From Stygiobacter electus (GTDB lineage: Bacteria > Bacteroidota > Ignavibacteria > Ignavibacteriales > Melioribacteraceae): a DNA stretch of 64,000 nucleotides. The notes beneath the pieces were generated by a model that did not search any database, was not told where the DNA came from, and saw only the letters and a list, made by a program, of their open reading frames with translations. Positions 26,499 through 40,349 of this stretch are shown piece after piece; within the stretch, counting starts at the first letter, position 1, and each line of letters opens with the position of its first letter. The position numbers and the translations under genes were made by a program. The DNA is taken from contig JARGDL010000010.1 in NCBI GenBank assembly GCA_029210465.1, positions 1-64,000 on the forward strand, given 5' to 3'.

Positions 26499-26927
26499 AT
26501 GATATATACAAAAACCGGTGAATATGCAATTAGGGCTATTTTATTTTTAGCTAGACAACCAAAAGAAGCATTAATCATGTCCTCGGAAATTGCAGAAAAA
26601 GAAGATATACCAGCACATTACTTAGCAAAAATTTTACAAAGAATGGCTAAATATGGTTATGTAGATTCTTTTAAAGGTCGAGGTGGTGGTTTTAAAATTA
26701 CTGAATTTGCTAAGAAAAGCTCTATTCTAGAAATTGTTGAAAGAGTTGAAGGTCCCGTAATTAATTTAAAATGTATTACTGGTTTGAAAGAATGTGACGA
26801 AGAAAATCCTTGTCCTCTTCATGAAGAATGGGCAGAGTTAAGAAATAGAATTTACAATTTAATTTCAAGTAGAACTGTTCAAGAAGTGGCAGAAGAATAT
26901 ACACCAACTTTACAGAAATTAAAATAG
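26499..26927 (+). CDS. Rrf2-family transcriptional regulator, likely Fe-S binding
   Basis: 142-residue winged-helix protein of the Rrf2 family (IscR, NsrR, CymR). The N-terminus MIYTKTGEYAIRAILFLA, the recognition region SSEIAEKEDIPAHYLAKILQRM and the wing GRGGGFKI are typical. Three Cys at 92, 99 and 105 are close to the IscR cluster ligands (92, 98, 104), so it probably senses through a 2Fe-2S or 4Fe-4S cluster. A strong AGGAG site precedes the ATG. It sits upstream of the sulfur operon but is separated from it by 1.45 kb of decayed DNA. Control of that operon is an inference only. Confidence 0.9.
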   Translation: MIYTKTGEYAIRAILFLARQPKEALIMSSEIAEKEDIPAHYLAKILQRMAKYGYVDSFKGRGGGFKITEFAKKSSILEIVERVEGPVINLKCITGLKECDEENPCPLHEEWAELRNRIYNLISSRTVQEVAEEYTPTLQKLK

Positions 26928-26974: not shown

Positions 26975-27075
26975 GTTTAAATTATTGAGTTATAATTTGA
27001 GAAATTATAACTCGAAACAAATTCCGAAATGATTCAATGTAGTTGTGTGAGAGAATGTGATATTTTGCACTAAAA

Positions 27076-27778
27076 TTAGATAAAAGTATAAGGTATTATA
27101 ATATTAATTATTCCTTGAATTTGTATCTTTCTACTTTGACTAATTTCGTGAACTAGTAAACTATTAAAATTCTCAATTATATAATTATTAACCTTTGAAG
27201 CTAATGTATTATCTAACCTGACATCCTATACATCAATAGAATTAAATTTTGAAAAAAATTTAAGGTACTTGAATAAGTCATGTTATCATAAAAAAATGAT
27301 TCACTTTTGTAACTGATACAATGCTGTCATCAAATTAAAATCTTCGATCACAACAAAAATAAATCCACAATACAACCATAGTAGATTTATTGTCAAAACT
27401 TTTTGAAATGGATCTTTTTATTATTAAAGCAACATAAGGATTACCATGCCGACCAACTTTTCTTATAAAAATACTTTCAAAGTAGAATTCATTATCAGTT
27501 GTATAATATCCTTGGTTTTCTAGTTTTGTTCTGCCCTATTCAGCTAATCGAGAAGTTATCCATTGAAAGGATTACTAAAATAAATTACACTAAAATTTGG
27601 AAATAGTCTATAAGCGAATACGTTGAAACTTATTTGTATACGATCCTTAAAAGCAATTTTTGAAGATTAATTTCCTTAACTCCATGTAGATTCTATCCTT
27701 TTTTAGTAAAGAATAAACATCATTCTGCCCTGGTAAGTTGCTAATTACTAACATAAATAAAAGAACCAACTTTTTCAT
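27076..27778 (-). pseudogene. Decayed gene for a small secreted protein
   Basis: An AAAGGA site precedes ATG 27778, which opens a clean signal peptide (MKKLVLLFMLVISNLPGQ). The frame stops at 27647, but protein-like sequence continues in other frames: KIAFKDRIQISFNVFAYRLFP; then ENQGYYTTDNEFYFESIFIR and RKVGRHGNPYVALIIKRSIS; then IFVVIEDFNLMTALYQLQK; and finally DVRLDNTLASKVNNYIIENF followed by SLLVHEISQSRKIQIQG, ending at a stop at 27076. Several frameshifts and internal stops separate these pieces. The original product would have been about 230 residues, exported, family not recognised. Confidence 0.7.
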
Positions 27779-28089
27779 ATTTAGTCCTTTTGGTTAATAT
27801 ATATTTAAGAATAGTTTTATGCTAAAATTATTGGTTATTTTTTGTAGTCAAAATATTTTGATTATTATTTCTTTTATAAAATTTTATAATACATAAAAGT
27901 AATAACAATAGAAGCATTAACTAAATAATAAAGAAAAGTTAAGCAACAAAGTAGGTTTACCACAATTAGAGCAAATAATTGAGCAATTTGGATAAAAGAA
28001 CAGATAGTCTAAAAATTTCCAACACTTGATAGTAGTTGAAAAATAAAAGCAAGAAATTACATAACAACATAAGAAAATCTATTTATTAA
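27779..28089. other. AT-rich gap with no intact gene
   Basis: Holds the presumed promoter side of the dead secreted-protein gene. On the plus strand there are a few short protein-like stretches in shifting frames (for example KVGLPQLEQIIEQF near 27950-27990 and LDKRTDSLKISNT near 27990-28028), probably part of the same remnant as 28090-28308. No RNA gene or clear terminator was seen. Confidence 0.5.
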
Positions 28090-28308
28090 ATTAGTAGCAG
28101 ACTTATAAGAATTAGTACATTTACACAAAAAGATATTATAAGCGATAAAATAGAACGAAGCAAAAAAAATTACACACAGCTTATAAAGAATAACGCAATT
28201 CAAACCGACTTATTTATTGCATTGATAAATCAAAAATTCAGCTTAAGGAATCTATTCCCAATTGATAAACTCAGAGACATAAAGATTTTCTTAGAAAAAT
28301 ATCATTGA
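28090..28308 (+). pseudogene. C-terminal remnant of an unrecognised gene
   Basis: A 72-codon open stretch with no ATG, GTG or TTG in its first 40 codons, reading like the end of a real protein (for example SKKNYTQLIKNNAIQTDLF, then IALINQKFSLRNLFPIDKL and RDIKIFLEKYH before TGA). Upstream, similar sequence appears in other frames with stops. I do not recognise the family. It lies between the dead secreted-protein gene and the sulfur-operon promoter. Confidence 0.5.
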
Positions 28309-28380
28309 ATCTCAAATACTTTTTAGACTTTATGTTCCATATTGGATTTAAAAAAATTATATACCTTGTTTAAGAAATAA

Positions 28381-28412
28381 TTTGACTTATTATTTTATTA
28401 AATTTATCTTTG
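28381..28412 (+). promoter_or_regulatory. Promoter of the sulfur-assimilation operon
   Basis: TTTG (28381-28384), a 20-base spacer and a perfect TATCTTTG (28405-28412), the Bacteroidota -33/-7 pair. Read as sigma70 it is TTGACT (28382-28387), 17 bases, TATCTT. Both readings predict a start near 28416, 18 bases before the leader peptide ATG. Confidence 0.75.
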
Positions 28413-28433
28413 CAACAAATAAAAAGAACAGGC

Positions 28434-28496
28434 ATGATAAAATTGAAAATAAATATTAATTGTTGTATGTGTATTAATCTCAAAAGAGGTCTGTGA
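28434..28496 (+). CDS. Cys-rich leader peptide of the sulfur operon (candidate attenuator peptide)
   Basis: A 20-codon frame encoding MIKLKININCCMCINLKRGL and ending at TGA 28494-28496. Codons 10-13 are TGT TGT ATG TGT (Cys-Cys-Met-Cys, 28461-28472), the end products made by the genes downstream. It starts about 18 bases after the predicted transcription start. The upstream context AAGAACAGG gives only a weak ribosome binding site, as is common in this phylum. The last codons and the stop form one arm of the predicted antiterminator. Slow decoding at the Cys codons would leave that arm free, while a ribosome at the stop would cover it. Too short for standard gene finders; function inferred from layout. 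Confidence 0.7.
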   Translation: MIKLKININCCMCINLKRGL

Positions 28497-28543
28497 AAGC
28501 ACAATAAGTTTTTTAAACTAACACGTAAAAGCCCTTCACAGAC
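28489..28543 (+). promoter_or_regulatory. Antiterminator pairing of the cys leader
   Basis: GTCTGTGAA at 28489-28497 is a perfect 9-base complement of TTCACAGAC at 28535-28543. The second element comprises the last bases of the terminator's 5' arm and its entire loop, so this pairing and the terminator hairpin exclude each other. Confidence 0.7.
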
Positions 28544-28556
28544 GAAGGGCTTTTTT
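28527..28556 (+). terminator. Intrinsic terminator (attenuator) in the cys leader
   Basis: 11-bp perfect stem AAAAGCCCTTC (28527-28537) and GAAGGGCTTTT (28544-28554) around a 6-base loop, with T run 28551-28556. It lies 31 bases after the leader-peptide stop and before the first structural gene. Confidence 0.9.
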
Positions 28557-28580
28557 ATTAAATAAAGAAAGGGTTGAAAA

Positions 28581-28721
28581 ATGAAAACATTAAGAAAAAA
28601 GAGATCGAAGATTAAGTTAACTAATAACTTAAATTCAATAAAATCCATTCATTCATATTTATCATCCTTCAATTCATCTATCTACTGTATCTGTACCCCC
28701 TCTATGTGTTGCTGCTGTTAA
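28581..28721 (+). CDS. Second Cys-rich small ORF (46 codons, ends in four Cys codons)
   Basis: ATG 28581 follows a GAAAGGG site at 7-base spacing. The frame starts MKTLRKKRSKIKL, is Ser/Asn/Ile-rich in the middle and ends SSIYCICTPSMCCCC before TAA. The last four codons are TGT TGC TGC TGT, and two more Cys lie at codons 36 and 38. It sits just after the attenuator terminator and 99 bases before the DUF2061 gene. No terminator hairpin follows, so if it senses cysteine the output could be translational or mRNA stability. It could also be a genuine small basic, Cys-tailed peptide. I do not recognise a family. Confidence 0.5.
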   Translation: MKTLRKKRSKIKLTNNLNSIKSIHSYLSSFNSSIYCICTPSMCCCC

Positions 28722-28820
28722 TTTTTTCATCTATCTATAAATAAAATTTCACTAAATATTCTTAACACTTTATAAGTATAATTTAAAACTTTAGTATTAT
28801 TCATTAGCAGGATAATAAGA

Positions 28821-29051
28821 ATGCATGACAAGCATTATAGAAGTATAATAAAATCTATAACCTGGCGATTAACTGGAAGTATTGATACAACCATAATTTC
28901 ATATTTGTTGACTGGTGATTATAAAATTGCTTTATCAATTGGTGGAATAGAAATCTTCACAAAAATTATACTTTATTATTTGCATGAAAGAATCTGGAAT
29001 AAAATAAAATTCGGGAAAGAACAAAAGTCAGAACCAGAATATCATATTTGA
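28821..29051 (+). CDS. DUF2061 small membrane protein
   Basis: 76 residues with two membrane segments. RSIIKSITWRLTGSIDTTIISYLLTGDYKIALSIGGIEIFTKIILYYLHERIW is the DUF2061 pattern. This domain is repeatedly found beside or fused to sulfate-activation genes (cysC/cysN/cysD), but its activity is not known. It is the first structural gene of the sulfur operon here, 7 bases before cysH. A weak AGGA site lies upstream. Confidence 0.9.
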   Translation: MHDKHYRSIIKSITWRLTGSIDTTIISYLLTGDYKIALSIGGIEIFTKIILYYLHERIWNKIKFGKEQKSEPEYHI

Positions 29052-29058
29052 GGTAGTT

Positions 29059-29760
29059 ATGAAAATACTTGAAAAAATAAAAAATCAATTATATGACAAA
29101 GATGCTTTTGAAATATTAAAACTTATTTCAAAGAAATTTGGAAATAAAGCAGTTTTTTCTACAAGTCTTAGTATTGAAGATCAGGTTATCACACATATGC
29201 TTGCATCACTAAATTCAAAAATCAAAATATTTACACTCGATACAGGCAGGTTGCCTAATGAAACTTATAATTTAATTGAAAGAACAATAGAAATATATAA
29301 TATACCGATAAAAATTTATTTCCCAAATCCTCGTTTAGTTGAAAGGATGGTTAATAGAGATGGAATAAATCTTTTTTATCGCAGTATCGAAAACAGAAAA
29401 AAATGTTGTCATGTAAGAAAAATTCAACCACTAAAACGTGCATTAAGAAATAAAAAAGTATGGATAACAGGATTAAGAAAAGAACAATCTATAACACGAC
29501 AAAATATGGAATTAGTTGAATACGATCCGGAATTCAGGATTATAAAAGTTAATCCATTAATTAATTGGACAGAAAAAGAAGTATGGGATTATATTAAAAA
29601 ATATAACATACCATACAACAGTCTTTATGATAAAAATTATACAAGCATTGGATGTGAACCATGTACAAGAGCAACACTGCCGGGCGAAGATATTCGAGCC
29701 GGTAGATGGTGGTGGGAACATCCCGAAACTAAAGAATGCGGTTTACACATTAAACATTAA
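29059..29760 (+). CDS. cysH: Adenylyl-sulfate (APS) reductase, CysH family
   Basis: Reduces APS to sulfite using thioredoxin. 233 residues: PAPS-reductase fold with [18 protein letters not shown] and [12 protein letters not shown]. The Cys pairs C116-C117 ([12 protein letters not shown]) and C199-x2-C202 (SIGCEPCT) are the ligands of a 4Fe-4S cluster that marks APS-using enzymes; PAPS-using E. coli CysH lacks them. The catalytic C227 lies in KECGLH. No cysC (APS kinase) is in the operon, which agrees with direct APS reduction. Confidence 0.94.
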
Positions 29761-29771
29761 AGGAGTTTGAT

Positions 29772-30653
29772 ATGGATTACCTGGATAAATTAGAAGCTCA
29801 CAGCATTTATATTTTCAGAGAAGCATATAGAGAATTTAAACATTTAGCCATGTTATGGTCTATTGGAAAAGATAGCACCGTACTTCTATATCTTGCAAGA
29901 AAAGCTTTTTTTGGTCATGTACCTTTTCCACTAATACATATAGATACTTCTTTTAAAATTCCTGAAATGATTGAATACAGAAATAAACTTGCAAGAGAAT
30001 TAAAACTAAAATTGATAGTTGGACAAAACAAAGAAGCACTTAAAACAAAACAGACTTTCCCGGATGACAATGTTGATAGAATTACTTGCTGCAAACTTCT
30101 AAAAACTGAAGCTTTGAAAAATACATTATCAGGACAATTCCCCAGATATAGACTTGATCACGAACTGGGTGTATTCGTTGAAGACCAAGATAAAGAAACT
30201 TACACTGGAGTAATTGTTGGTGTAAGAGCCGACGAAGAAGGAAGTCGTTCTAAAGAACGATATTTTTCTCCAAGAGACAAAAATAGTGATTGGGATATTG
30301 GCGATCAGCCACCTGAGTTATGGAATCAATTTAAAACTGAATTTGCACTAAAAACTCACGTAAGAATTCATCCATTACTCGATTGGACAGAATTAAATAT
30401 CTGGGAATATATCGATAGAGAAAATATTCCTGTAGTATCACTTTATTTTGACAATGACAACGGGAAAAGATATCGTTCTCTTGGATGCTATCCTTGCACT
30501 TTACCTATAGATTCTACTGCAAAAAATGTAAAAGATATTATTAAAGAATTAAAAAGTGGTAAACTAAAAAATATTGCAGAGAGATCTGGAAGAGCACAGG
30601 ATAAAGACGGAGGTGGAACATTAGAAGAACTGAGAAGAGAAGGCTATATGTAA
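29772..30653 (+). CDS. cysD: Sulfate adenylyltransferase subunit 2
   Basis: Small catalytic subunit of ATP sulfurylase; makes APS from ATP and sulfate with CysN. 293 residues. Motifs: [16 protein letters not shown], the PP-loop-like [42 protein letters not shown] and [11 protein letters not shown], with the C-terminal [23 protein letters not shown] being the CysD signature. A good AAAGGAG site precedes it. A 120-base gap separates it from cysN with no obvious terminator. Confidence 0.96.
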
Positions 30654-30773
30654 AATAAAATATTGTTTATCTGTTAAGACTTTTTTATTTATTGATTTTA
30701 TCAACATATAAAAAAATTTTTAATTGAATCATTTTATCAAATAATAAGAATTTGAAATTAATAGAGATCTAAT

Positions 30774-32126
30774 ATGAAAGAAAGAATGAATATTGTTGTG
30801 GTTGGTCATGTAGATCATGGGAAAAGCACTTTAATTGGTCGATTACTTGCAGATACAAACTCATTACCTGTTGGTAAATTAGAACAGATTAAAAAAACTT
30901 GCGAATTAAATGCAAAACCATTTGAGTATGCTTTTCTTCTTGATGCTTTGGTAGATGAACAAACACAGGGAATTACAATTGATACAGCAAGAATATTCTT
31001 TAAAACGAAAAAAAGAGAATATATAATTATTGATGCACCAGGTCATATCGAATTTTTGAAAAATATGATCAGTGGTGCAGCACGAGCCGAAGCAGCAATT
31101 TTATTAATTGATGCACACGAAGGTATCGCAGAAAATACGAAGCGTCATGCATATATGCTTTCATTACTTGGTATTAATCAGATTATTGTAGCAGTAAATA
31201 AAATGGACTTAGTTGATTTCAGCGAATCCAGATTTAATCAAATTAAAAATGATTATTCAAAATATCTTAATGAAATAAATATTAATCCTGTCGAATATGT
31301 TCCTATATCAGCATTCCACGGTTTAAATTTGATCGAGCATTCAAATAAAATGTCCTGGTATAAAGGTAAAACTATTCTTGAATTAATCGATTCATTTGAA
31401 AAAGAAAAAGAAGAAGAAGAAAATGATTTCAGGATGTTTGTACAGGGTGTTTATAAATTTACAGAAAATGGAGATAACCGCAGAATAATCGCTGGTACAA
31501 TCAATTCAGGTACTATTAATGTTGGAGACGAAATTATTTTTCTGCCATCACAAAAGAAATCTATAGTAAAATCAATTGAAATATTTGGTAAAGAAGCTCC
31601 ATTATTTGCAATAGCAGAACAAGCAATTGGATTAACATTAACAACTCAAATTTATGTTAAACCGGGCGATTTAATTTGCAGAATAGATCAACAATTGCCA
31701 TATGCCACTAATCGTTTTGTCGCCAATATTTTCTGGATGGGGAAAAACAATCTTAGTATTCATAAAAAATATAAACTAAAAATTGGAACTAATAAGGCTG
31801 GTGTTAGCATTGAAGCTATTAAATCTGTCATGAATGCTTCTACACTAAAAAAAGAAAATTATAGAGAAGAAGTTCATAGAAATGAAGTAGCTCAAATTAT
31901 ATTTAGAACAGATAAACCAATCAGCTTTGACCTGTTCAGCAAAATTAAATCAACTGGAAGATTTGTAATTGTTGACGAATATGATATAGCTGGTGGTGGA
32001 ATTATCATAGAAGCTCTTGAAGAAAAAGAAGAATTGGTTACTCCAGATTATTCCGGCTTCGAAAGAGAATTATATGAATTAATTAAAAAATATTTCCCCC
32101 ACTGGGAAATAAAACCAATTTACTAA
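30774..32126 (+). CDS. cysN: Sulfate adenylyltransferase subunit 1 (GTPase)
   Basis: GTPase partner of CysD that drives APS synthesis. 450 residues. G1 [15 protein letters not shown] (about 10-24), the switch region [15 protein letters not shown]3 DAPGHIEF and G4 NKMDL, then EF-Tu-like beta-barrel domains with [11 protein letters not shown]. No APS kinase domain is fused at the C-terminus, unlike CysNC proteins. Confidence 0.95.
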
Positions 32127-32146
32127 ACCTATTAAAGGTAGTTCTC

Positions 32147-33499
32147 ATGGAAAAGATAAATAAATATAAAATAAATTCATTGCCAATTTTATTAAGAAAT
32201 CCAAAAATTTTACTGATTGGCGGTGGTAATGTGGCTTTTCAAAAAGCTAAAGTATTAATAGAAAACGAAATTGAATTCTTTATTATAGCAGAGAAAGTTT
32301 GTGAAGAATTAAAATATTTCAATATTCCATACAAGCAAAAGAAATTTGAAAAGAGTGATGCAGATAATTTCAATATAATTATAAATGCAACTGGAAATGA
32401 TGAAGTAAAAAATATAATCAATGAAATTAAGAAAGAAAGATTTATTCTTGTCAATACAGTTGATGTACCTGAAGAATGTGATTTTTACTTTTCATCTTTA
32501 CTTTTGTATAAAAATTTAAAAATAGCCGTATCAAGTGATGGTGCCAGTCCAACTTTAACTCAAATAGTTAGAGATAAAATAAAACAATTATTACCTGATA
32601 GACTTGGAGAATTTGCAGAGAAAAAATTATATGAAAGGATTAATTCAAAAATTGAAATTGAAAAAACCAAAAAAGAAACATTACGTTTATTTGGAAAAGT
32701 TTATATCATTGGTTGCGGTATTGGAGGAGTTGACTTTTTAACAATAAAAGCATTTAAAACTTTACAATATCTCAATATAGTTTTTTATGATCATCTTATT
32801 GATGATGAAATATTAGACATACTTCCAAAGAAAACAAAAAAAATTTATGTGGGGAAATGCAAAGGAAAACACTCTTTATCACAAGATGAAATTAATAATT
32901 TATTACTGGAATTTGCATTAAAAGGAATGAAAGTGGGCAGATTAAAAAATGGAGATCCTTTTATATTCGGTAGAGGTGCAGAAGAAGCAGAATTTTTAAT
33001 AAATAACAATATCGATGTTGAAATTATTCCCGGTATCTCTTCGGCTTTTGCTGCACCATTGGCAGCTGGAATACCACCTACTTCAAGAGGATTCGCAAAT
33101 TCTGTTTCAGTTGTTACTGGACACATTAGTGGTGGAGCTTTTGACAGTTCTTGGATAGAATTATTAAAAAGAAAAAATCATACTACAATTGTTTTGATGG
33201 GTTTAACACAAGTTGAAAATATTTATCATTATGCAATTAATTCAGGTATCGATAAAAATTTACCAGTTGCTATTGTCTCAAATGCTGCAAGCAGCAATCA
33301 AAAAGTTTTTACTGGCAATCTTGAAAATCTAATTGCACTTTCTAAAGAAGCAACTTCTCCTGCTGTTTTAATATTCGGTGAAGTAATTAAATACTCAAAT
33401 ATACTCCCACATTACGAAGCTGGATTTAATGAATTAAATTACCTTTCAACCGAAACTTCAAGTAATGATTTATTAAAAAAAGAAAGGGTGTTATTATGA
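32147..33499 (+). CDS. cysG: Siroheme synthase (precorrin-2 dehydrogenase/ferrochelatase and uroporphyrinogen-III methyltransferase)
   Basis: 450-residue fusion supplying siroheme for the sulfite reductase encoded next. The N-terminal domain (about 1-150) has the NAD site ILLIGGGNVAFQKAKVL and the DGASPTLTQIVRDKIKQ segment. The C-terminal CobA-type SAM methyltransferase (about 180-430) has YIIGCGIGGVDFLTIKAF, YVGKCKGKHSLSQDEIN, GRLKNGDPFIFGRGAEE and PGISSAFAAP. The stop overlaps the sir start (ATGA). Confidence 0.94.
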   Translation: MEKINKYKINSLPILLRNPKILLIGGGNVAFQKAKVLIENEIEFFIIAEKVCEELKYFNIPYKQKKFEKSDADNFNIIINATGNDEVKNIINEIKKERFILVNTVDVPEECDFYFSSLLLYKNLKIAVSSDGASPTLTQIVRDKIKQLLPDRLGEFAEKKLYERINSKIEIEKTKKETLRLFGKVYIIGCGIGGVDFLTIKAFKTLQYLNIVFYDHLIDDEILDILPKKTKKIYVGKCKGKHSLSQDEINNLLLEFALKGMKVGRLKNGDPFIFGRGAEEAEFLINNNIDVEIIPGISSAFAAPLAAGIPPTSRGFANSVSVVTGHISGGAFDSSWIELLKRKNHTTIVLMGLTQVENIYHYAINSGIDKNLPVAIVSNAASSNQKVFTGNLENLIALSKEATSPAVLIFGEVIKYSNILPHYEAGFNELNYLSTETSSNDLLKKERVLL

Positions 33500-35712
33500 C
33501 ACAAATAAAAATTTGGGAACAAATAGACATTAATAGTGGATTTGATGTTTATAGTGAAATTAATGAATATGAAGAGATAATCCACAAATTAAAAAACCAG
33601 GAAATCCACCCTGAAAGATTTAAAGGATATCGTCTTACTTTTGGAACTTATGGTGTAAGGCATCATGGCGAGGGAATCCACATGCAAAGAATTAAAATTC
33701 CGAGTGGTTTTATTCTCTCAGAACAACTAAGACAAATTGCTTCAATTGTTGAAAAATATGTTGGTTCACAACATGCACATTTAACAACACGACAGGATAT
33801 TCAATTACATTTTATAAAAATTGAAGACATCCCTACAATATTACGTCTACTTGCAGATGTTGGTATTACAGCAAAAGAAGCATGCGGTAATAGTGTACGA
33901 AATATAACTTCTTCATATTTATCGGGAATTAATCCAGAAGAATATTTTGATGTTCTTCCTTATGCTATATTTTGCACAAGATATTTTTTACGACATCTAC
34001 TTTCTTCTACACTACCAAGAAAATTTAAAATTACTTTCTCGGAAAGTGAACAGGATTTAGCTTATTCAAGAATTCATGATATTGGTTGCATTGCACAAAT
34101 ACAAAAAAATGGAAATGGCTTACAGTATGGATTTAAAGTTTATGTTGGTGGTGGACTCGGTTCGGTACCTATGACAGCTTATCCTCTCTTTGATTTTGTA
34201 TCGGTATCAGATTTTTATCCACTAGCCGAAGCAATTTTAAGAGTGTTCCATAAATATGGAACTGAAGAAAGAAAAAATAGAAACCGTGCAAGAATGAAAT
34301 TTTTAATTGCCAGAATTGGTTTTGAAAATTTCAAAGATCTAGTTATAAAAGAATTTATTTCACTTAAAAATTTCAGAAGAATAAATAATGAACTCGAAAA
34401 ATATGTTCAGGATTTTCCATTACCTGCTCCAACAAAAAATGGTCGCAGTTTTGGTCCCATAAATACCTCAAGAATTACATTGCCATTATATTCAAATTAT
34501 AATTTTGAAGAAGATGCTCTCTGGAATACTTATATTAAAAAATATACAATTAAACAAAAGCAAGATGGTTACTTTGCACTTTTTGTAAAACCACCACTTG
34601 GAAATTTAAATGCGGAGAAATTAAACATAATAGCCAATTTCTCAGATTCATACGGTGCAGGTTATGTAAGAATTACTCCAACACAAAAATTATTAATACC
34701 GTGGATCGAAGAAAAATTCTTAAAAGATGCATTTCACTTCTTAAAAGAAAATAAATTTATTGGAGAAGAAACTGAGGCAATGCAAGAAATTGTCTCATGC
34801 CCGGGTGCATTTTCCTGTCGCCTTGCTGTTACTCATCCATACAATTTTGCAGAACATATTGGTAAAAACATTGATGAACTTCATGGATTGCGTATTCATA
34901 TTTCAGGATGCCCAAATTCATGTAGTCAACATCATATTAGTGATATCGGATTTTTCGGTGCGTTGCTTAGAGTCAACGGAAAACTTTCGCCACATTATGT
35001 TGTTTTGCTTGGAGGAAATGTTTTTTATCAGAATAATAGAATTGGACAGGTAATTGGTAAAATACCTGCATTAAATGCGCACTTATTTGTTAAAGATATT
35101 GTTCAATTATGGAATGAACAAAAATTAGATGGTGAAAAATTTTATGAATTTGTCGATAGAATTGGAATTGACGCTTTTAGAAAATTATTAATAAAAAATT
35201 CAACTGTTGCAAAAGATAATTACGATTATTTCCAAGAACCAGGTATTGAATCAGAATTCAAAATGGAAGCTGAATCACGTGGTGAGTGTGCTGGAAGTCT
35301 TCTCGATATCATGGCAATAAATCTTTATGATTCAATTAGAAATATTTATGAAGCCGAGGATGATATTAAAGCTAAAAACTGGTCTGCTGTAAAAGAAAAA
35401 TGCCTGGATTCAATACTCAAATGTGCTAAGATGTATGTATATCTTGAAGGAATTGAACCAACTTCTGAAGATGAAATACTCAATGAGTTTGTAGAAAGAA
35501 TTAACATAAAACACTGGTTATGCAACGATTGGTCTGATATTAAAGAAAAATATTTCATCTGGAAATATTCATCAGATGACGAAATTAATGCAATTGAAAT
35601 ACTCAACTATACAAAAGAATTTGTAAAAGATTCTGATAAATCTTATATGCGATTATTGCCAAACTTAAAAATTATGGAATGTGCAAAAATTACGGAGGAT
35701 AACAATGACTGA
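33496..35712 (+). CDS. Siroheme/4Fe-4S sulfite reductase with extra C-terminal domain
   Basis: Hemoprotein of the nitrite/sulfite reductase family, predicted to reduce sulfite by six electrons. 738 residues. Two ferredoxin-like and siroheme domains; cluster Cys are C435, C441 (SCPGAFSC) and C472, C476 (SGCPNSC). Arg-rich siroheme motifs such as HLTTRQDIQLHF and YVRITPTQKLLIP are present. Classical relatives have about 550-600 residues; from about 590 on this protein adds a helical domain starting SRGECAGSLLDIMAINLYDSI that resembles HEPN-type helical bundles. Sulfite rather than nitrite is inferred from the operon. The partner electron donor is not in the window. Confidence 0.9.
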   Translation: MTQIKIWEQIDINSGFDVYSEINEYEEIIHKLKNQEIHPERFKGYRLTFGTYGVRHHGEGIHMQRIKIPSGFILSEQLRQIASIVEKYVGSQHAHLTTRQDIQLHFIKIEDIPTILRLLADVGITAKEACGNSVRNITSSYLSGINPEEYFDVLPYAIFCTRYFLRHLLSSTLPRKFKITFSESEQDLAYSRIHDIGCIAQIQKNGNGLQYGFKVYVGGGLGSVPMTAYPLFDFVSVSDFYPLAEAILRVFHKYGTEERKNRNRARMKFLIARIGFENFKDLVIKEFISLKNFRRINNELEKYVQDFPLPAPTKNGRSFGPINTSRITLPLYSNYNFEEDALWNTYIKKYTIKQKQDGYFALFVKPPLGNLNAEKLNIIANFSDSYGAGYVRITPTQKLLIPWIEEKFLKDAFHFLKENKFIGEETEAMQEIVSCPGAFSCRLAVTHPYNFAEHIGKNIDELHGLRIHISGCPNSCSQHHISDIGFFGALLRVNGKLSPHYVVLLGGNVFYQNNRIGQVIGKIPALNAHLFVKDIVQLWNEQKLDGEKFYEFVDRIGIDAFRKLLIKNSTVAKDNYDYFQEPGIESEFKMEAESRGECAGSLLDIMAINLYDSIRNIYEAEDDIKAKNWSAVKEKCLDSILKCAKMYVYLEGIEPTSEDEILNEFVERINIKHWLCNDWSDIKEKYFIWKYSSDDEINAIEILNYTKEFVKDSDKSYMRLLPNLKIMECAKITEDNND

Positions 35713-35941
35713 TATTAAACCTGACGAAATTTTAGATCTTAAAGGTGTTCAATGCCCTTTTAATTATGTTAAAACAAAACTTAAGCTCGAAACTATGCAA
35801 AGTGGTCAAATTCTCGAAGTTAGCTTAGATGATGGAGAAGCAATAAAAAATGTCCCACAATCGTTAAAACAGGATGGACACCAAATTTTATTACAAGAAA
35901 AATTAAATGAACGATTCTGGAAAATATTTGTTAAGAAATAA
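35705..35941 (+). CDS. TusA/SirA-like sulfur relay protein (first copy)
   Basis: 78 residues. The family motif with reactive Cys is GVQCPFNYVKTKLKLE (C17), followed by LEVSLDDGEAIKNVPQSLKQDGH. A GGAGGA site 5 bases before ATG 35705 fixes the start and overlaps the sulfite reductase end by 8 bases; the longer open frame to 35681 is rejected. TusA proteins carry persulfide sulfur, so this one may pass sulfur from sulfite reduction toward the carrier or cysteine synthase. Confidence 0.9.
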   Translation: MTDIKPDEILDLKGVQCPFNYVKTKLKLETMQSGQILEVSLDDGEAIKNVPQSLKQDGHQILLQEKLNERFWKIFVKK

Positions 35942-35953
35942 AAAGAGAAGAAT

Positions 35954-36877
35954 ATGAGAATTGCAGAAGATATCACAAAATTAATCGGAAATACACCTCT
36001 GGTTAAAATCAATAAAATAACTAAAGACTCAGAAGCAACTGTCGTAGCAAAATTAGAATCGTTTAATCCATGTGCTTCTGTTAAAGATAGAATTGGTGTT
36101 TCTATGATAGAAGATGCTGAACAGAAAGGTTTAATCAATAAAGATACTATAATTGTTGAACCAACTTCTGGTAATACTGGACTTGCACTTGCTTTCGTAG
36201 CGGCTGCAAAAGGATATAAAATAATCATAACTATGCCTGAATCTATGAGTATTGAAAGGAAAAAATTACTTGAATTATTTGGAGCAGAAGTTATTCTTAC
36301 ACCAGCAGAAAAAGGAATGCAGGGTTCAATTGATAAAGCAGAAGAAATATTGAAGAACACAAAAAATTCCTTTATGCCTTATCAATTTAAGAATCCTGCT
36401 AATCCAGAAATACACAGAAAAACTACTGCAGAAGAAATCTGGAATGATACAGATGGAAAAATTGATATTTTTATTGCTGGTGTTGGAACCGGAGGCACTA
36501 TAACCGGTGTTTCTGAAGTATTAAAACAAAGAAAGCCAGAATTAAAAACTATTGCTGTTGAACCATTTAGTTCTGCTGTCCTTTCTGGTAATAAACCAGG
36601 TCCTCACATGATTCAAGGAATTGGAGCGGGATTTATACCAGATGTATTGAATGTAAATATCATTGATGATATTTTTAAAGTAAAAAATGAGGATGCAATA
36701 AATATGGCTAAAAGAATTATAAAAGAAGAAGGAATAATTGTAGGAATTTCAAGTGGGGCAGCTATGTATGCAGCTCTTCAAATTGCAAATAGAAAAGAAA
36801 ATAAAGACAAATTAATTGTTGTAATTTTTCCAGATACTGGAGAAAGATATTTATCAATTTCAATTTTTACATCTTAA
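35954..36877 (+). CDS. cysK: Cysteine synthase (O-acetylserine sulfhydrylase)
   Basis: PLP enzyme of 307 residues. The PLP Lys is K44 in [11 protein letters not shown]; the substrate loop [13 protein letters not shown] and the phosphate-binding [14 protein letters not shown] are intact, as is [13 protein letters not shown]. It makes cysteine from O-acetylserine and sulfide, or, as in mycobacterial CysM, from a protein thiocarboxylate. The adjacent sulfur carrier makes the second option worth testing. No serine acetyltransferase is in the window. Confidence 0.93.
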
Positions 36878-36893
36878 TTTTAAGGAGAAAAGT

Positions 36894-37112
36894 ATGGAAT
36901 TAACTATCAACGGGAAAAAAGAAATTATTGATAAAGGAAAACTAACAGTTGGTATATTGCTTAAGTTAAAAGATATTCAGATGCCTGAAATGGTATCTGT
37001 TGAATTAAACGGTGAAATAATTGATCGAAAAGATTACGATAAAATAGAATTACAAAATTCTGATATAATTGAATTTTTATATTTCATGGGTGGTGGAAAT
37101 TATGGAAATTGA
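36894..37112 (+). CDS. ThiS/MoaD-like sulfur-carrier protein with C-terminal extension
   Basis: 72-residue beta-grasp protein. MELTINGKKEIIDKGKLTVGILL and VSVELNGEIIDRKDYDKIEL are ThiS-like, and ...IIEFLYFMGGG (G66-G68) is the carrier tail. ThiS normally ends in GG; here NYGN follows, so thiocarboxylate formation would need cleavage after a Gly. This parallels HcyS of Wolinella, which carries an extra residue removed by the metalloprotease HcyD. A JAMM protease is encoded at the operon end. The extension codons overlap the metY start by 11 bases. An AAGGAG site precedes the ATG. Confidence 0.88.
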   Translation: MELTINGKKEIIDKGKLTVGILLKLKDIQMPEMVSVELNGEIIDRKDYDKIELQNSDIIEFLYFMGGGNYGN

Positions 37113-38337
37113 AACAAAAGCAATCCATTCAGGATTTGCACAAGAAGATAAATTTGGAGCGACTTCTTTCCCAATTTATGGAAGTGCTGCATTTGCTTAT
37201 AATACAGCTGAAGATCTAAGCGAAGTATTCGAAGGGAAAAAATTTGGGTATGTATACTCAAGAATTTCTAACCCTACAGTTACAGCCTTTGAACACAGAA
37301 TGAATGCACTCGAAGAAGGAATTGGAGCCATTGCTGGTGCATCAGGTATGTCGGCAATAGCAACTGTAATTTTTACTCTAACTGAATATGGAGATGAAAT
37401 AATTTCTTCTGAATCTTTATTCGGAGGTACATATTTATTCTTTAAGGAAATATTAAATAAATATGGGGTAAAAGTTCATTATGTTAATATTAATGACATT
37501 AGTAATTGGGAAAAATTAATAAATAACAAAATTAAACTCATTTTTCTTGAATCAATAAGTAATCCGAAATTAGAAATACCTGATTTAAAAGCGATTTCTA
37601 AAATAGCACACGAACATAACATACCAGTAGTTATTGATAATACTGTATCTACACCTTACTTATGGCGTGCAAAATATTTTGGAGCAGATATAATTGTGCA
37701 CTCTACAACTAAATATATATCTGGAAATGGGACAACAATTGGCGGTATTTTAATAGACACAGGTAATTATGATTGGAAAAAATCTATTGTGGGAAAAATT
37801 AAAGAAATGAGTTCAAAAGCAGGTAACTTTGCTTTTTTAGCTACTGCAAGGTCAAAAATTTATCAGAATTTAGGATTTGCCCCTTCACCATTTAGTGCAT
37901 TTCTTAATTTAATTGGTATTGAAACTTTGCCTCTCAGAATGGAAAAACACTGCGAAAATTCATTAAAACTTGCTGAGTTTTTAAGATCAAATAAAAATGT
38001 TGTTGAAGTCAACTATCCTGGTTTAAAAGAAAATCAATATCATAAAATTGGTAAAGAACAATTTAATAATAAGTTTAGCGGACTTTTAACATTTTCTCTT
38101 CAATCCAAAGATGATTGTTTTAAGTTAATTAATAATCTTAAGCTTGCTAAAAATTTAGCTAACATTGGTGATACACGTACTCTGGTTATCCATCCAGATT
38201 CTACTATTTACCTGAATTGTTCACAAGAAGAAAAAAAATCTGCTGGTGTAAATGACAAAATGATTAGAGTTTCTGTTGGATTAGAAAATATAAATGACTT
38301 AATTGAAGATTTTAAACAAGCATTAGAAAAAATTTAA
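37102..38337 (+). CDS. metY: O-acetylhomoserine sulfhydrylase (homocysteine synthase)
   Basis: Cys/Met-metabolism PLP enzyme of 411 residues. Starts METKAIHSGF-like (MEIETKAIHSGFAQ), with YGSAAFAYNTAEDLSEVFEG, YSRISNPTVTAFE, GASGMSAIATVI, the PLP Lys K204 in VHSTTKYISGNGT and the C-terminal SVGLENINDLIEDF. The internal ATG 37102 is chosen over an upstream non-ATG frame because it matches the family start. In Wolinella the equivalent enzyme takes sulfur from a carrier-protein thiocarboxylate rather than free sulfide. Its place beside a carrier, E1 and JAMM protease supports that here. Confidence 0.93.
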   Translation: MEIETKAIHSGFAQEDKFGATSFPIYGSAAFAYNTAEDLSEVFEGKKFGYVYSRISNPTVTAFEHRMNALEEGIGAIAGASGMSAIATVIFTLTEYGDEIISSESLFGGTYLFFKEILNKYGVKVHYVNINDISNWEKLINNKIKLIFLESISNPKLEIPDLKAISKIAHEHNIPVVIDNTVSTPYLWRAKYFGADIIVHSTTKYISGNGTTIGGILIDTGNYDWKKSIVGKIKEMSSKAGNFAFLATARSKIYQNLGFAPSPFSAFLNLIGIETLPLRMEKHCENSLKLAEFLRSNKNVVEVNYPGLKENQYHKIGKEQFNNKFSGLLTFSLQSKDDCFKLINNLKLAKNLANIGDTRTLVIHPDSTIYLNCSQEEKKSAGVNDKMIRVSVGLENINDLIEDFKQALEKI

Positions 38338-38351
38338 TAGGAGATTTATAA

Positions 38352-39155
38352 ATGAATTTTACTGAAGAACAAATTATAAGATATAGCAGGAATATAATTC
38401 TAAGAGAAGTTGGCGGCGAAGGACAAAGAAGATTACTCGAATCAAAAGTACTTGTTATTGGTGCTGGAGGTTTAGGTTCCCCTATCTTACTTTATCTTGC
38501 TGCTGCTGGAGTAGGTACATTAGGTATAATTGATAGCGATGTTGTAGATCTAAGCAATCTTCAACGTCAAATAATTCATTTTACTCCAGATATTAATATT
38601 CCAAAGGTTGATTCAGCTAAATCCAAAATTAAACAGCTAAACCCTGATGTAAATGTAATTACATATAAGGTAAGACTTTCTTCAAAAAATATTGTTGAGA
38701 TTATTAAAGATTATGATTTTATTATAGATGGTACAGATAATTTCCCTACAAAATTTTTAGTTAATGATGCATGTGTAATGAATAATAAACCTTTTTCTCA
38801 TGCGGGAATTTTAAGATTCGAAGGACAAACTTTTACTTACACTCCGGGTAACATGTGCTACAGATGTATTTTCAATGAACCACCTCCAAAAGGAGTTGTA
38901 CCAACCTGCAGCGAAGCTGGTATTCTTGGAGCCGTTGCTGGTGTTATAGGTACAATTCAAGCAGTTGAAGCATTAAAATACATTCTTCAGAATGGAGATT
39001 TGCTCACTAATAAACTCCTTACATTTAATGCGTTAACTACTCAATTCAGAGAAATTAAATTAAACAGAAATGAAAATTGCCCTGTATGTGGGAAAAGCCC
39101 AACTATCAAAGAGCTGCAGGATTATGAACAGCCCGTTTGTGAACTAAAACTATAA
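38352..39155 (+). CDS. ThiF/MoeB-type E1 adenylyltransferase (HcyF-like)
   Basis: 267 residues; activates the C-terminal Gly of a ThiS-like carrier by adenylation. ATP site VLVIGAGGLGSPILLYLAAAGVG, the IIDSDVVDLSNLQRQIIHF Asp/Arg block, DGTDNFPTKFLVNDAC and a candidate acceptor Cys C186 in VPTCSEAGILGAVAG. Zinc Cys pairs C169/C172 (CYRC) and C243/C246 (CPVC). No rhodanese domain is present, so sulfur must come from another protein, such as the TusA/DsrE-like ones beside it. Confidence 0.92.
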   Translation: MNFTEEQIIRYSRNIILREVGGEGQRRLLESKVLVIGAGGLGSPILLYLAAAGVGTLGIIDSDVVDLSNLQRQIIHFTPDINIPKVDSAKSKIKQLNPDVNVITYKVRLSSKNIVEIIKDYDFIIDGTDNFPTKFLVNDACVMNNKPFSHAGILRFEGQTFTYTPGNMCYRCIFNEPPPKGVVPTCSEAGILGAVAGVIGTIQAVEALKYILQNGDLLTNKLLTFNALTTQFREIKLNRNENCPVCGKSPTIKELQDYEQPVCELKL

Positions 39156-39166
39156 GGAGAGCTATT

Positions 39167-39646
39167 ATGGTAGAGAAAAAGAAAATATCAATAGTACTTT
39201 TTAGCGGAGATTTTGATAAAGCAATCGCAGCCTTTACAATTGCTTCCGGTGCTGCTGCTGTAAATTATGATGTAAATATTTTTTTTACTTTCTGGGGTTT
39301 GAATGTAATTAAAAAAATAAAACATAGAAATGCAACTGGTAAAGGCTTACTCGCAAGAGTATTCAACTACTTAATGGGCGGATTTAAAAATTTACCTTTG
39401 AGTAGATTAAACTTTGCAGGATTAAGTCCAAAACTTATGACAAATTTAATGAGAAAAAGAAATGTTGCAACGTTAGAAGAATTAATAAATGCTGCAATAC
39501 AACTAAATGTAAATTTATATGCATGCGAAATGTCAATAAATATTCTTGGATTGGAAAAAGATGATTTTATTCCAGAAGTTAGAGAAATTCTTGGAGTTGC
39601 AAAATTCTTAAATCTTTCCGAAGGAGGTGAAATTTTATTCATATGA
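39167..39646 (+). CDS. DsrE-like (DsrE2-type) sulfur-transfer protein
   Basis: 159 residues with the DsrE/DsrF-like Rossmann-type fold: KISIVLFSGDFDKAIAAFTIASGAA, a hydrophobic FFTFWGLNVI segment and NVNLYACEMSINILGLEKDDF with a conserved Cys (C120). DsrE2-type proteins act with TusA in bacterial sulfur trafficking. It overlaps the second TusA-like gene by 4 bases, the same pairing seen in sulfur oxidisers, but here in an assimilatory operon. Confidence 0.87.
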   Translation: MVEKKKISIVLFSGDFDKAIAAFTIASGAAAVNYDVNIFFTFWGLNVIKKIKHRNATGKGLLARVFNYLMGGFKNLPLSRLNFAGLSPKLMTNLMRKRNVATLEELINAAIQLNVNLYACEMSINILGLEKDDFIPEVREILGVAKFLNLSEGGEILFI

Positions 39647-39870
39647 AAACTTTTAAATTAGATATAACAAAAGAACATTGCCCCATGACATTTGTTAAAA
39701 CCAAACTTGAACTTGAAAAACTTAGTAAAGGTGATATACTTGAAGTTGTTTTAAAAGAAGGTGAACCGCTTGAAAATGTACCAAAGACAGTTACTGAACA
39801 GGGGAATAAAGTTTTAGAAATAAAAAATATTCAGGATGATATTTTTCTGGTAATTATTGAAAAGGGTTAA
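39643..39870 (+). CDS. TusA/SirA-like sulfur relay protein (second copy)
   Basis: 75 residues with KEHCPMTFVKTKLELEKL (reactive Cys C13 in the CPM-x3-K motif), then GDILEVVLKEGEPLENVPKTVTEQG. It is similar in layout to the first copy at 35705 and likely a paralogue. It is coupled to the DsrE-like gene and 2 bases before the JAMM gene, so it probably passes persulfide sulfur to the E1/carrier. Confidence 0.9.
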   Translation: MKTFKLDITKEHCPMTFVKTKLELEKLSKGDILEVVLKEGEPLENVPKTVTEQGNKVLEIKNIQDDIFLVIIEKG

Positions 39871-39872
39871 TT

Positions 39873-40265
39873 ATGATTAAAATACCTCAAGACATTTACA
39901 ATAAGATAATTGAACATAGTAAAAACGATTATCCTCTTGAAGCATGTGGTTATCTGGTTGGGAATAATGAAATTGTTATTGATATAATAAATATGACAAA
40001 TATTGATAAATCAAACGAACATTTTACTTTTGATCCGAAAGAACAATTTCAGGCTATAAAATATGCACGTCAAAAAGGAGCAAATTTAATTGCTGTTTAT
40101 CATTCGCATCCGGCTTCGCCTGCAAGAATGTCAAAGGAAGATATTCGACTTGCTAACGATACATCTATCAAATATTTAATATATTCGGTTTCGGAAGAAA
40201 AGTTAAAATGTTTTTCCATTGATAAAGAAAAAAATGTAACTGAGGAATTTATTGAAGTTATATAA
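39873..40265 (+). CDS. JAMM/Mov34 metalloprotease (HcyD/Mec-like)
   Basis: 130-residue zinc peptidase. The JAMM motif is complete: E23 (LEACGYL), H77-S-H79-P and S87-x2-D90 (YHSHPASPARMSKEDI). Small stand-alone JAMM proteins next to ThiS-like carriers either trim the carrier tail to expose Gly-Gly (HcyD) or release cysteine from the carrier adduct (mycobacterial Mec). Here the extended carrier tail favours at least the trimming role. It is the last gene of the operon; no clear intrinsic terminator follows. Confidence 0.92.
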   Translation: MIKIPQDIYNKIIEHSKNDYPLEACGYLVGNNEIVIDIINMTNIDKSNEHFTFDPKEQFQAIKYARQKGANLIAVYHSHPASPARMSKEDIRLANDTSIKYLIYSVSEEKLKCFSIDKEKNVTEEFIEVI

Positions 40266-40349
40266 TAAATTGTAATCATAAAATTCATTAATACATAATA
40301 GAATCTACTTCTTAATAACTTTTCTGACGATAGTTTATTTACTATAGTT

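What the first reader, a model, noticed from the sequence alone, without database searches (positions are those of the whole stretch)
28381..28556. Ribosome-mediated cysteine attenuator in front of a sulfur-assimilation operon
Seen directly: a strong promoter (28381-28412); a 20-codon ORF with codons TGT TGT ATG TGT (28461-28472); an 11-bp terminator with T run (28527-28556); and a perfect 9-base complement between 28489-28497 (last codons and stop of the ORF) and 28535-28543 (the terminator's 5' arm end and loop). The geometry matches trp/his-type attenuation. A ribosome stalled at the Cys codons covers up to roughly 28485 and leaves the antiterminator arm free. A ribosome at the stop codon covers 28489-28497, so the terminator forms. 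Downstream genes make cysteine and homocysteine. Peptide-based Cys attenuation has been described in mycobacteria; I know of no such transcription attenuator in this phylum.
Basis: partly seen in the sequence, partly recalled or inferred. Interest (0 to 1): 0.93.

Follow-up and report, generated by a model that had tools for sequence, protein, structure and literature searches.

The report
Cysteine attenuator for sulfate assimilation
In front of its sulfate-assimilation operon this bacterium carries a tiny cysteine-rich leader gene followed by a transcription terminator and a rival hairpin that covaries with it across relatives, an arrangement predicted to switch the operon on when cysteine runs short.

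Summary
Leader ORF 28434-28496, terminator 28527-28556 and the 9-base complement are present; 8 of 20000 shuffles reach 9 bases.

Relatives back the mechanism. With an anchor chosen without the terminator loop, loop base 1 pairs with the antiterminator in 28 of 46 anchored sites (11.4 expected, 0 of 10000 shuffles), with all four Watson-Crick pairs. A codon-blind search for antiterminator plus terminator in 146 genomes gave 30 matches (reversed control 0); 29 follow a Cys/Met-rich leader ORF, Cys-biased before cysK and cysH operons, Met-biased before metY. The window's cys leader is not itself among the 30; its near-identical sister copy is.

Three additions. A second conserved ORF ending in poly-Cys (28581-28721) lies in series. 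Some relatives have a SAM-I riboswitch there. The operon with its leader (28354-40282) is 90-97% identical to one in another genus, so it was probably transferred.

Ribosome-mediated Cys attenuation is a known kind; this family, its Cys/Met swapping and serial arrangements look like a new variant. No expression data exist; how the second ORF acts is open.

The parts
28382..28412 (+). Promoter of Bacteroidota-like shape (shape recalled), TTGACT ... TATCTTTG
   Evidence: Pattern at 21 of 33 sites vs 50 of 4770 control stretches; plain sigma-70 scan not above chance
28434..28496 (+). Leader ORF1, MIKLKININCCMCINLKRGL*
   Evidence: same-position Cys/Met-rich ORFs in relatives
28461..28472 (+). Sensor codons TGT TGT ATG TGT (Cys Cys Met Cys)
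   Evidence: Cys bias in leaders of cys genes
28489..28497 (+). Antiterminator 5' strand GTCTGTGAA, overlapping the last ORF1 codons and stop
   Evidence: covariation in relatives
28527..28556 (+). Intrinsic terminator; 28535-28543 is the 3' partner of the antiterminator
28581..28721 (+). Leader ORF2, 46 codons, ending MCCCC*; the 60 nt ahead of its last five codons are C-rich and G-poor (C 0.28, G 0.05)
   Evidence: Same place in 8 of the 11 attenuator-bearing loci and in L040; composition
28707..28718 (+). Four Cys codons TGT TGC TGC TGT directly before TAA
28821..29051 (+). DUF2061 small membrane protein, first structural gene
   Evidence: PF09834
29059..29760 (+). cysH, APS/PAPS reductase
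29772..30653 (+). cysD, sulfate adenylyltransferase small subunit
   Evidence: NF003587
30774..32126 (+). cysN, sulfate adenylyltransferase large subunit
   Evidence: TIGR02034
32147..33499 (+). cysG-like siroheme synthase
33496..35712 (+). Sulfite/nitrite reductase-type hemoprotein (Pfam domains; no NCBIfam match above its cut-off)
35954..36877 (+). cysK, cysteine synthase
   Evidence: TIGR01139
37069..38337 (+). O-acetylhomoserine sulfhydrylase-like gene (homocysteine route; below the TIGR01326 cut-off)
28354..40282 (+). Segment 90-97% identical to genome G061 of another genus: operon with its complete leader

Best explanation
The leader 28382-28556 is most likely a ribosome-mediated transcription attenuator that would sense charged tRNA-Cys (and possibly tRNA-Met) and is predicted to let RNA polymerase into the sulfate-assimilation operon only when cysteine is short. 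When cysteine is plentiful the ribosome would reach the ORF1 stop (28494-28496), cover about 28479-28506 including the strand 28489-28497, and leave the terminator free to form. When cysteine is short it would stall at 28461-28472, so that 28489-28497 captures 28535-28543 as soon as it is transcribed; this must be kinetic. Shown: the sequence parts, their conservation, covariation and pathway-matched sensor codons. Inferred: translation of ORF1, stalling, and read-through. The second ORF (28581-28721) is likely a further cysteine checkpoint in series; my best guess is poly-Cys stalling that shields a Rho-loading tract (about 0.4).
For: (1) Parts exact in the window; the complement is unlikely by chance.
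(2) Leader, terminator and operon recur: 11 of the 20 DUF2061 loci, window included; a named-genome scan gave 12 loci, among them Sunxiuqinia, Aliifodinibius and Melioribacteraceae.
(3) Antiterminator duplex against shuffles: z negative in 33 of 33 sites, p at or below 0.05 in 18 of 33. Own partners beat swapped ones, -13.5 vs -10.7 kcal/mol over 29 sites, 0 of 10000 permutations.
(4) Loop-blind covariation: loop base 1 28 of 46 Watson-Crick vs 11.4 expected, 0 of 10000; base 2 19 vs 11.6, 116 of 10000. In L012 the terminator arm (GCCTCC) and the upstream strand (GGAGGC) have both changed.
(5) Codon-blind search: 29 of 30 matches follow a Cys/Met leader, reversed control 0. Cys share of Cys+Met is 0.73 (10 cys leaders) vs 0.18 (19 metY leaders), p about 1e-5.
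(6) Constrained folding with the 3' arm half made: antiterminator 0.82 with a ribosome stalled at the last Cys codon, 0.54 at the first, 0.00 at the stop.
Against: No expression or ribosome data. With the complete terminator made, folding gives terminator in all ribosome states. The window's own antiterminator is weaker than the sister copy's (-14.4 vs -19.0); its strand reads GAAAG, so the window's cys leader does not match the codon-blind pattern, and L003 fails the loop-blind anchor, as do L025, L039 and L076. Covariation at loop bases 3-5 is at chance. 15 of 33 sites are not individually better than shuffles at 0.05. In the cys-gene leaders Cys does not always outnumber Met: 11 of 17 have at least as many Cys as Met, and so do 7 of 36 metY leaders; the L008 leader has a single Cys. 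Many DUF2061 loci lack the element: 8 of 20 (one more has too little upstream sequence to judge) and all 25 loci that newly brought in. Sites are related by descent, so shuffle p-values are too small.
Confidence: 0.86

Rival explanations
1. The element is a general sulfur-amino-acid sensor: stalling at Met codons (28467 here) matters as much as at Cys codons, so it reads Met-tRNA and Cys-tRNA together.
For: Pooled over 17 cys-gene leaders (cysK included) there are 55 Cys and 49 internal Met; metY leaders of the same architecture are mostly Met-rich and 4 of 36 have no Cys.
Against: The four cysK leaders (L106, L107, L110, L111) have runs of three or more Cys and few Met, and the window's ORF1 has three Cys and one internal Met.
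Confidence: 0.35
2. ORF1 is incidental and the terminator alone sets a constant low level of expression, or closes an upstream transcript.
For: The terminator is the stable fold at equilibrium in every state.
Against: Covariation between antiterminator and terminator loop, own-versus-swapped test, 29 of 30 codon-blind matches with Cys/Met leaders matched to pathway.
Confidence: 0.05
3. The operon is controlled mainly by a protein regulator (an Rrf2/CymR-like factor), with the leader secondary.
For: An Rrf2-family gene lies at 26499-26927. In 15 of the 25 DUF2061 loci newly brought in a Cys-motif reading frame that I take for Rrf2 lies within 800 nt upstream of DUF2061 (named by motif and recall, no family scan there).
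Against: The window's Rrf2 gene lies outside the shared segment 28354-40282, and none of those 15 loci has the attenuator, so the two look like alternatives.
Confidence: 0.1
4. ORF2 is a translational attenuator that hides the DUF2061 ribosome-binding site, as described for mycobacterial poly-Cys ORFs.
For: Poly-Cys directly before the stop; in the window the Cys-codon stretch TGCTGCTG can pair with the DUF2061 upstream stretch containing AGCAGG.
Against: Across 7 loci own pairing is no better than swapped, -9.6 vs -9.5 kcal/mol, 1965 of 5040 permutations, and no locus is below 0.10 against shuffles.
Confidence: 0.25

Closest known systems
trp/his-type ribosome-mediated transcription attenuation (features recalled)
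   Same: Leader ORF with codons for the end product, antiterminator strand overlapping the ORF end, intrinsic terminator, matched biosynthetic operon
   Different: Two-structure switch with a short GAAGG/CCTTC-type antiterminator; Cys and Met as sensed residues; found in Ignavibacteria and scattered Bacteroidota-group genomes
uORFC-8-2 motif upstream of cysS in Rhodobacterales (PMC8632094, passages read)
   Same: Cys codons in a uORF before an intrinsic terminator, proposed as attenuation
   Different: Other gene (cysteinyl-tRNA synthetase), other phylum, Cys codons inside a stem; no serial second element in the passages read
Poly-Cys leader ORFs of mycobacteria and other Actinobacteria (PMC1262725, passages read; Canestrari 2020 not held, title seen in the reference list of PMC13236596)
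   Same: Poly-Cys run near the stop upstream of cys operons, no obvious terminator: resembles ORF2; Rho-dependent termination was suggested for them in 2005
   Different: ORF2 follows a complete ORF1 attenuator, is not leaderless, and hiding of the ribosome-binding site is not supported
metL leader of Streptomyces lividans, upstream of metNIQ (PMC8079986, passages read)
   Same: Cys/Met-mixed leader peptide (..CMCRRMC..) before a methionine gene
   Different: Leaderless, no typical intrinsic terminator, transport operon, Actinobacteria
SAM-I (S-box) riboswitch, RF00162
   Same: Found before metY and cys operons of relatives, in the second position of the leader
   Different: Absent from the window's leader; in relatives it stands behind a Cys/Met peptide leader, giving two devices in series

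Membership tests
Ribosome-mediated transcription attenuator (ORF1) | Short leader ORF with a cluster of codons for the pathway end product | tested here: met
   pathway match
Ribosome-mediated transcription attenuator (ORF1) | Intrinsic terminator between leader ORF and structural genes | tested here: met
   28527-28556
Ribosome-mediated transcription attenuator (ORF1) | Mutually exclusive antiterminator, supported by compensatory change | tested here: met
   weaker in the window copy than in its sister
Ribosome-mediated transcription attenuator (ORF1) | Antiterminator strand blocked by a ribosome at the stop and free when it stalls at the sensor codons | tested here: met
   Geometry from coordinates and a recalled ribosome footprint; constrained folding. 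A kinetic assumption is needed
Ribosome-mediated transcription attenuator (ORF1) | Read-through depends on leader translation and on charged tRNA | not testable with these tools
   Needs reporters or term-seq
Poly-Cys translational attenuator, mycobacterial type (ORF2) | Cys codons directly before the stop, conserved | tested here: met
   Three to five Cys codons before TAA in 8 loci (two near-identical) and in L040
Poly-Cys translational attenuator, mycobacterial type (ORF2) | Pairing that hides the downstream ribosome-binding site | tested here: not met
   Own vs swapped pairing indistinguishable, 7 loci
Poly-Cys translational attenuator, mycobacterial type (ORF2) | Leaderless start | tested here: not met
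   ORF2 starts 24 nt behind the terminator's T run with AGAAAGGG upstream; no transcription start mapped
Rho-dependent leader-peptide attenuator, tnaC-like (ORF2) | C-rich, G-poor tract near the leader stop | tested here: inconclusive
   C 0.22-0.38, G 0.05-0.17 in the 60 nt ahead of the last five codons in the 9 loci listed (two near-identical); in the window no 78-nt stretch of six operon genes is as C over G. Rho dependence untested
SAM-I riboswitch | RF00162 match in the window leader | tested here: not met
   at gathering scores only SRP RNA and a tRNA in the window

The most novel reading that the evidence does not exclude
A sulfur-specific class of leader-peptide attenuators shared by Ignavibacteria and scattered Bacteroidota-group bacteria, in which one terminator/antiterminator chassis is re-aimed by swapping Cys for Met codons and stacked in series with a second detector: a poly-Cys ORF (here, likely Rho-gated), a second Met attenuator, or a SAM-I riboswitch. 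One mRNA leader would then compute Cys-tRNA, Met-tRNA and SAM supply before the operon is transcribed, and the whole module moves between genera with its operon.
Probability: 0.45. Interest if true: 0.85.

Novelty: new variant of a known kind. Interest (0 to 1): 0.74.

Why it matters
A 2010 survey knew of leader-peptide systems only in Proteobacteria and Actinobacteria and added some in Firmicutes (PMC2965389, passages read). If this finding holds, a group of Ignavibacteria in the Bacteroidota/Chlorobiota branch would control sulfur assimilation by ribosome stalling. The Cys/Met codon swap on one chassis would be a natural experiment on how an attenuator is re-aimed. The stacking with SAM-I riboswitches or a second poly-Cys ORF makes logic gating in a natural leader directly testable. 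It would also explain, without a protein regulator, how a transferred cys operon can arrive already regulated.

Tried and rejected
Sigma-70 promoter scan: no enrichment over shuffles; replaced by the family-wide promoter pattern. Rfam: no family covers the leader at gathering scores. SAM-I in the window: absent. Poly-Cys stop pattern TGYTGYTGYTGYTAA as a finder for ORF2: 104 of 146 genomes match, but none of the 30 loci looked at (of more matches than the call lists) has ORF2 architecture; in 27 the Cys frame has no ATG, and most lie beside a longer open frame. Hiding of the ribosome-binding site by ORF2: first script faulty because of an empty slice (its ORF1 part is sound), the repeat found no signal. 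First terminator scan lost some true hairpins, loosened, which still found a leader-terminator pair in only 33 of 48 regions given; at least L074, L100 and L040 among its misses do have a leader, and L074's hairpin has no T run. In some searches several loci were measured from metY instead of DUF2061; redone, same negative result; one chance pair there (L056) lies in coding sequence and was dropped. Near-duplicates dropped before counts: L004, L034, L041, L101; 54 sites reduced to 50, of which 46 reached the anchor score of 6 that I set. L118 is the one codon-blind match without a leader ORF and is counted as a miss. In one search the L003 peptide stands in for its sister L122 in the codon-blind subset (same Cys and Met counts). 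Only 20 of the 30 fetched metY loci were scanned.

Full report
What is there. Searches confirm every base of the finding: leader ORF1 28434-28496 (MIKLKININCCMCINLKRGL*), Cys codons in 28461-28472, terminator 28527-28556, and the exact complement of 28489-28497 with 28535-28543. The complement reaches 9 bases in only 8 of 20000 dinucleotide shuffles. Downstream are a DUF2061 gene, cysH, cysD, cysN, a cysG-like gene, a sulfite/nitrite reductase-type gene, cysK and an O-acetylhomoserine sulfhydrylase-like gene, so the pathway statement holds.

A second ORF, 28581-28721, with AGAAAGGG in front, ends in four Cys codons and a stop. An ORF ending in three to five Cys codons recurs at the same place in 8 of the 11 attenuator-bearing loci (L003-L008, L011, L012; L003 and L004 near-identical) and before a sulfate ABC transporter and cysH operon in L040. 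In the other three of the 11 (L010, L013, L020) a SAM-I riboswitch stands there instead. In Sunxiuqinia neither was seen: DUF2061 follows the terminator directly. Of 30 metY loci fetched, 20 were scanned and all 20 carry SAM-I; 16 of these 20 also carry a Cys/Met leader ORF in front of it and 4 (L077, L079, L081, L096) do not.

Conservation and spread. DUF2061 searches in the order gave 20 loci in 17 of 146 genomes. Of these, 11 have leader plus terminator (one, L008, with a single Cys), 1 has too little upstream sequence, and 8 have none: five lie in open frames of 241-260 aa (L014-L017, L022; CysC-like upstream by eye) and three are weak or broken hits. A pattern search of 391 genomes of the class found 7 with a match, reversed control 0, one of them in another family. 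A scan of named genomes gave 12 loci: three Sunxiuqinia, two Aliifodinibius, one Melioribacter, two other Melioribacteraceae, one Ignavibacteriales and three less named. The phylum search brought 28 new locus ids, of which two repeat known positives (L047, L052) and one a known negative (L057); none of the other 25 has the element, and 15 of these 25 instead have a reading frame with an Rrf2-like Cys motif upstream.

Mechanism tests. Duplex energies of the antiterminator strand with the terminator arm and loop are below the shuffle mean in 33 of 33 sites, and at or below p 0.05 in 18 of 33 (the 33 sites came from 48 upstream regions given). Own partners beat swapped partners, -13.5 against -10.7 kcal/mol over 29 sites, 0 of 10000 permutations. 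In a test whose anchor ignores the loop, loop base 1 pairs in 28 of 46 anchored sites against 11.4 expected, with GC 11, TA 8, CG 7 and AT 2; base 2 gives 19 against 11.6; bases 3 to 5 are at chance; four sites, the window's own among them, do not anchor (a first version on 25 anchored sites gave 16 against 6.9). In L012 both strands have changed together. Because the sites share ancestry these p-values are too small, but four pair types at a loop base are hard to explain without the antiterminator.

Codon identity follows pathway. Searching only for GAAGG plus terminator, without any codon requirement, gave 30 matches in 24 of 146 genomes, reversed control 0. The window's cys leader is not among them because its strand reads GAAAG; its sister copy in G061 (L122) is, and the window genome's one match is its metY leader (L126). 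Of the 30, 29 have a Cys/Met-rich leader ORF ending at the antiterminator. Before cysK (family confirmed for L106, L107 and L110; L111 by its start sequence) the leaders carry CCC or CVCCCC. Before DUF2061-cysH operons Cys outnumbers internal Met in 5 of 6 (L135 has 2 against 3). Before metY Met outnumbers Cys in 19 of 19, as in the window genome's own metY leader MKRIDLNIAQINFMMWMMNSYNPKGD*. Cys share of Cys+Met is 0.73 against 0.18 for this subset, 10 and 19 leaders. For all 17 cys-gene and 36 metY leaders, most of the extra ones found through their Cys/Met content, it is 0.58 against 0.29, with overlap: 11 of 17 and 7 of 36 have at least as many Cys as Met. In four genomes metY leaders are doubled, two attenuators in a row (L120/L133, L130/L116, L119/L132, L121/L134).

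Folding. With RNA polymerase half through the terminator's 3' arm, a ribosome at the stop codon gives terminator 0.985 and antiterminator 0.00; stalled at the last Cys codon antiterminator 0.82; stalled at the first 0.54; no ribosome gives terminator 0.96. Once the whole terminator exists it wins in all states. So the switch must be decided while the loop and 3' arm are being transcribed, and an untranslated leader would be expected to terminate.

ORF2. The 60 nt ahead of its last five codons are C-rich and G-poor in the 9 loci listed, and in the window no 78-nt stretch of six operon genes is so C over G. That is compatible with a Rho-loading tract shielded by a ribosome stalled on poly-Cys, the idea raised for mycobacterial cys operons in 2005 (PMC1262725, passages read). 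Hiding of the DUF2061 ribosome-binding site was tested and not supported. This part stays a guess.

Transfer. Window 28354-37500 is 97% identical, and 36000-40282 90% identical, to genome G061 of another genus; no match was found for 27000-28353, and regions right of 40282 match at 82% or less. The left edge lies 28 bases upstream of the promoter; the leader itself is 95.8% identical over 478 bases. Contig lengths suggest that genus is Melioribacter (L035 and G125:C4 both 298912 bases). The window's own genus-mates G010, G046 and G063 gave no DUF2061 match. The simplest reading is recent horizontal transfer of operon plus regulator; direction is not shown.

Literature. Ten searches of the open-access library listed no paper that I recognised as reporting a cysteine leader-peptide attenuator in Ignavibacteriota or Bacteroidota, or a leader-peptide attenuator in series with a SAM riboswitch. 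Closest are PMC1262725, PMC8632094 (cysS, Rhodobacterales), PMC8079986 (metL of Streptomyces) and PMC9723704, which reports clues for leader-peptide attenuation before amino-acid operons in a Flavobacterium without naming them in the passages seen; passages only were read in each. Passages of PMC13236596, PMC4833913 and PMC2965389 were also seen. The mycobacterial poly-Cys paper is not held and is known here from a citation and recall. Most subscription papers are not in the library.

Verdict. It works like a trp-type attenuator and meets each defining feature that sequence can test; dependence on translation and on tRNA-Cys is untested.

Noticed in passing
28354-40282: Operon with complete leader is 90-97% identical to a genome of another genus while flanks are not; edge 28 bases upstream of the promoter: probable horizontal transfer.
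   Followed up: partly
L102 and L126 (genome contig C1, upstream of metY): The window genome's own metY has a Met-rich leader (MMWMM) with the same terminator and antiterminator; metY starts about 30 nt behind the terminator, leaving no room for a riboswitch.
   Followed up: yes
L120/L133, L130/L116, L119/L132, L121/L134: Doubled Met/Cys attenuators, two complete copies in a row before metY, in four genomes.
   Followed up: partly
L029 / L032: A class-mate of another family has two Cys leaders in series before metY, the second with a different terminator (GCCTTCC...GGAAGGC).
   Followed up: no
26499-26927: Rrf2-family regulator gene upstream of the transferred segment; in 15 of 25 other DUF2061 loci of the phylum search a reading frame with an Rrf2-like Cys motif lies upstream of DUF2061.
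   Followed up: partly
38352-40265: The same segment carries MoeB/ThiF-like, DsrE2-like and JAMM (desampylase-like) genes, the last two below their NCBIfam cut-offs, suggesting a sulfur-carrier-protein branch of cysteine synthesis.
   Followed up: no
metY leaders among L075-L101: In the ten that match the promoter pattern the leader start codon lies 9-12 bases behind TAnnTT(T/C)G, so these leader mRNAs may be nearly leaderless.
   Followed up: no
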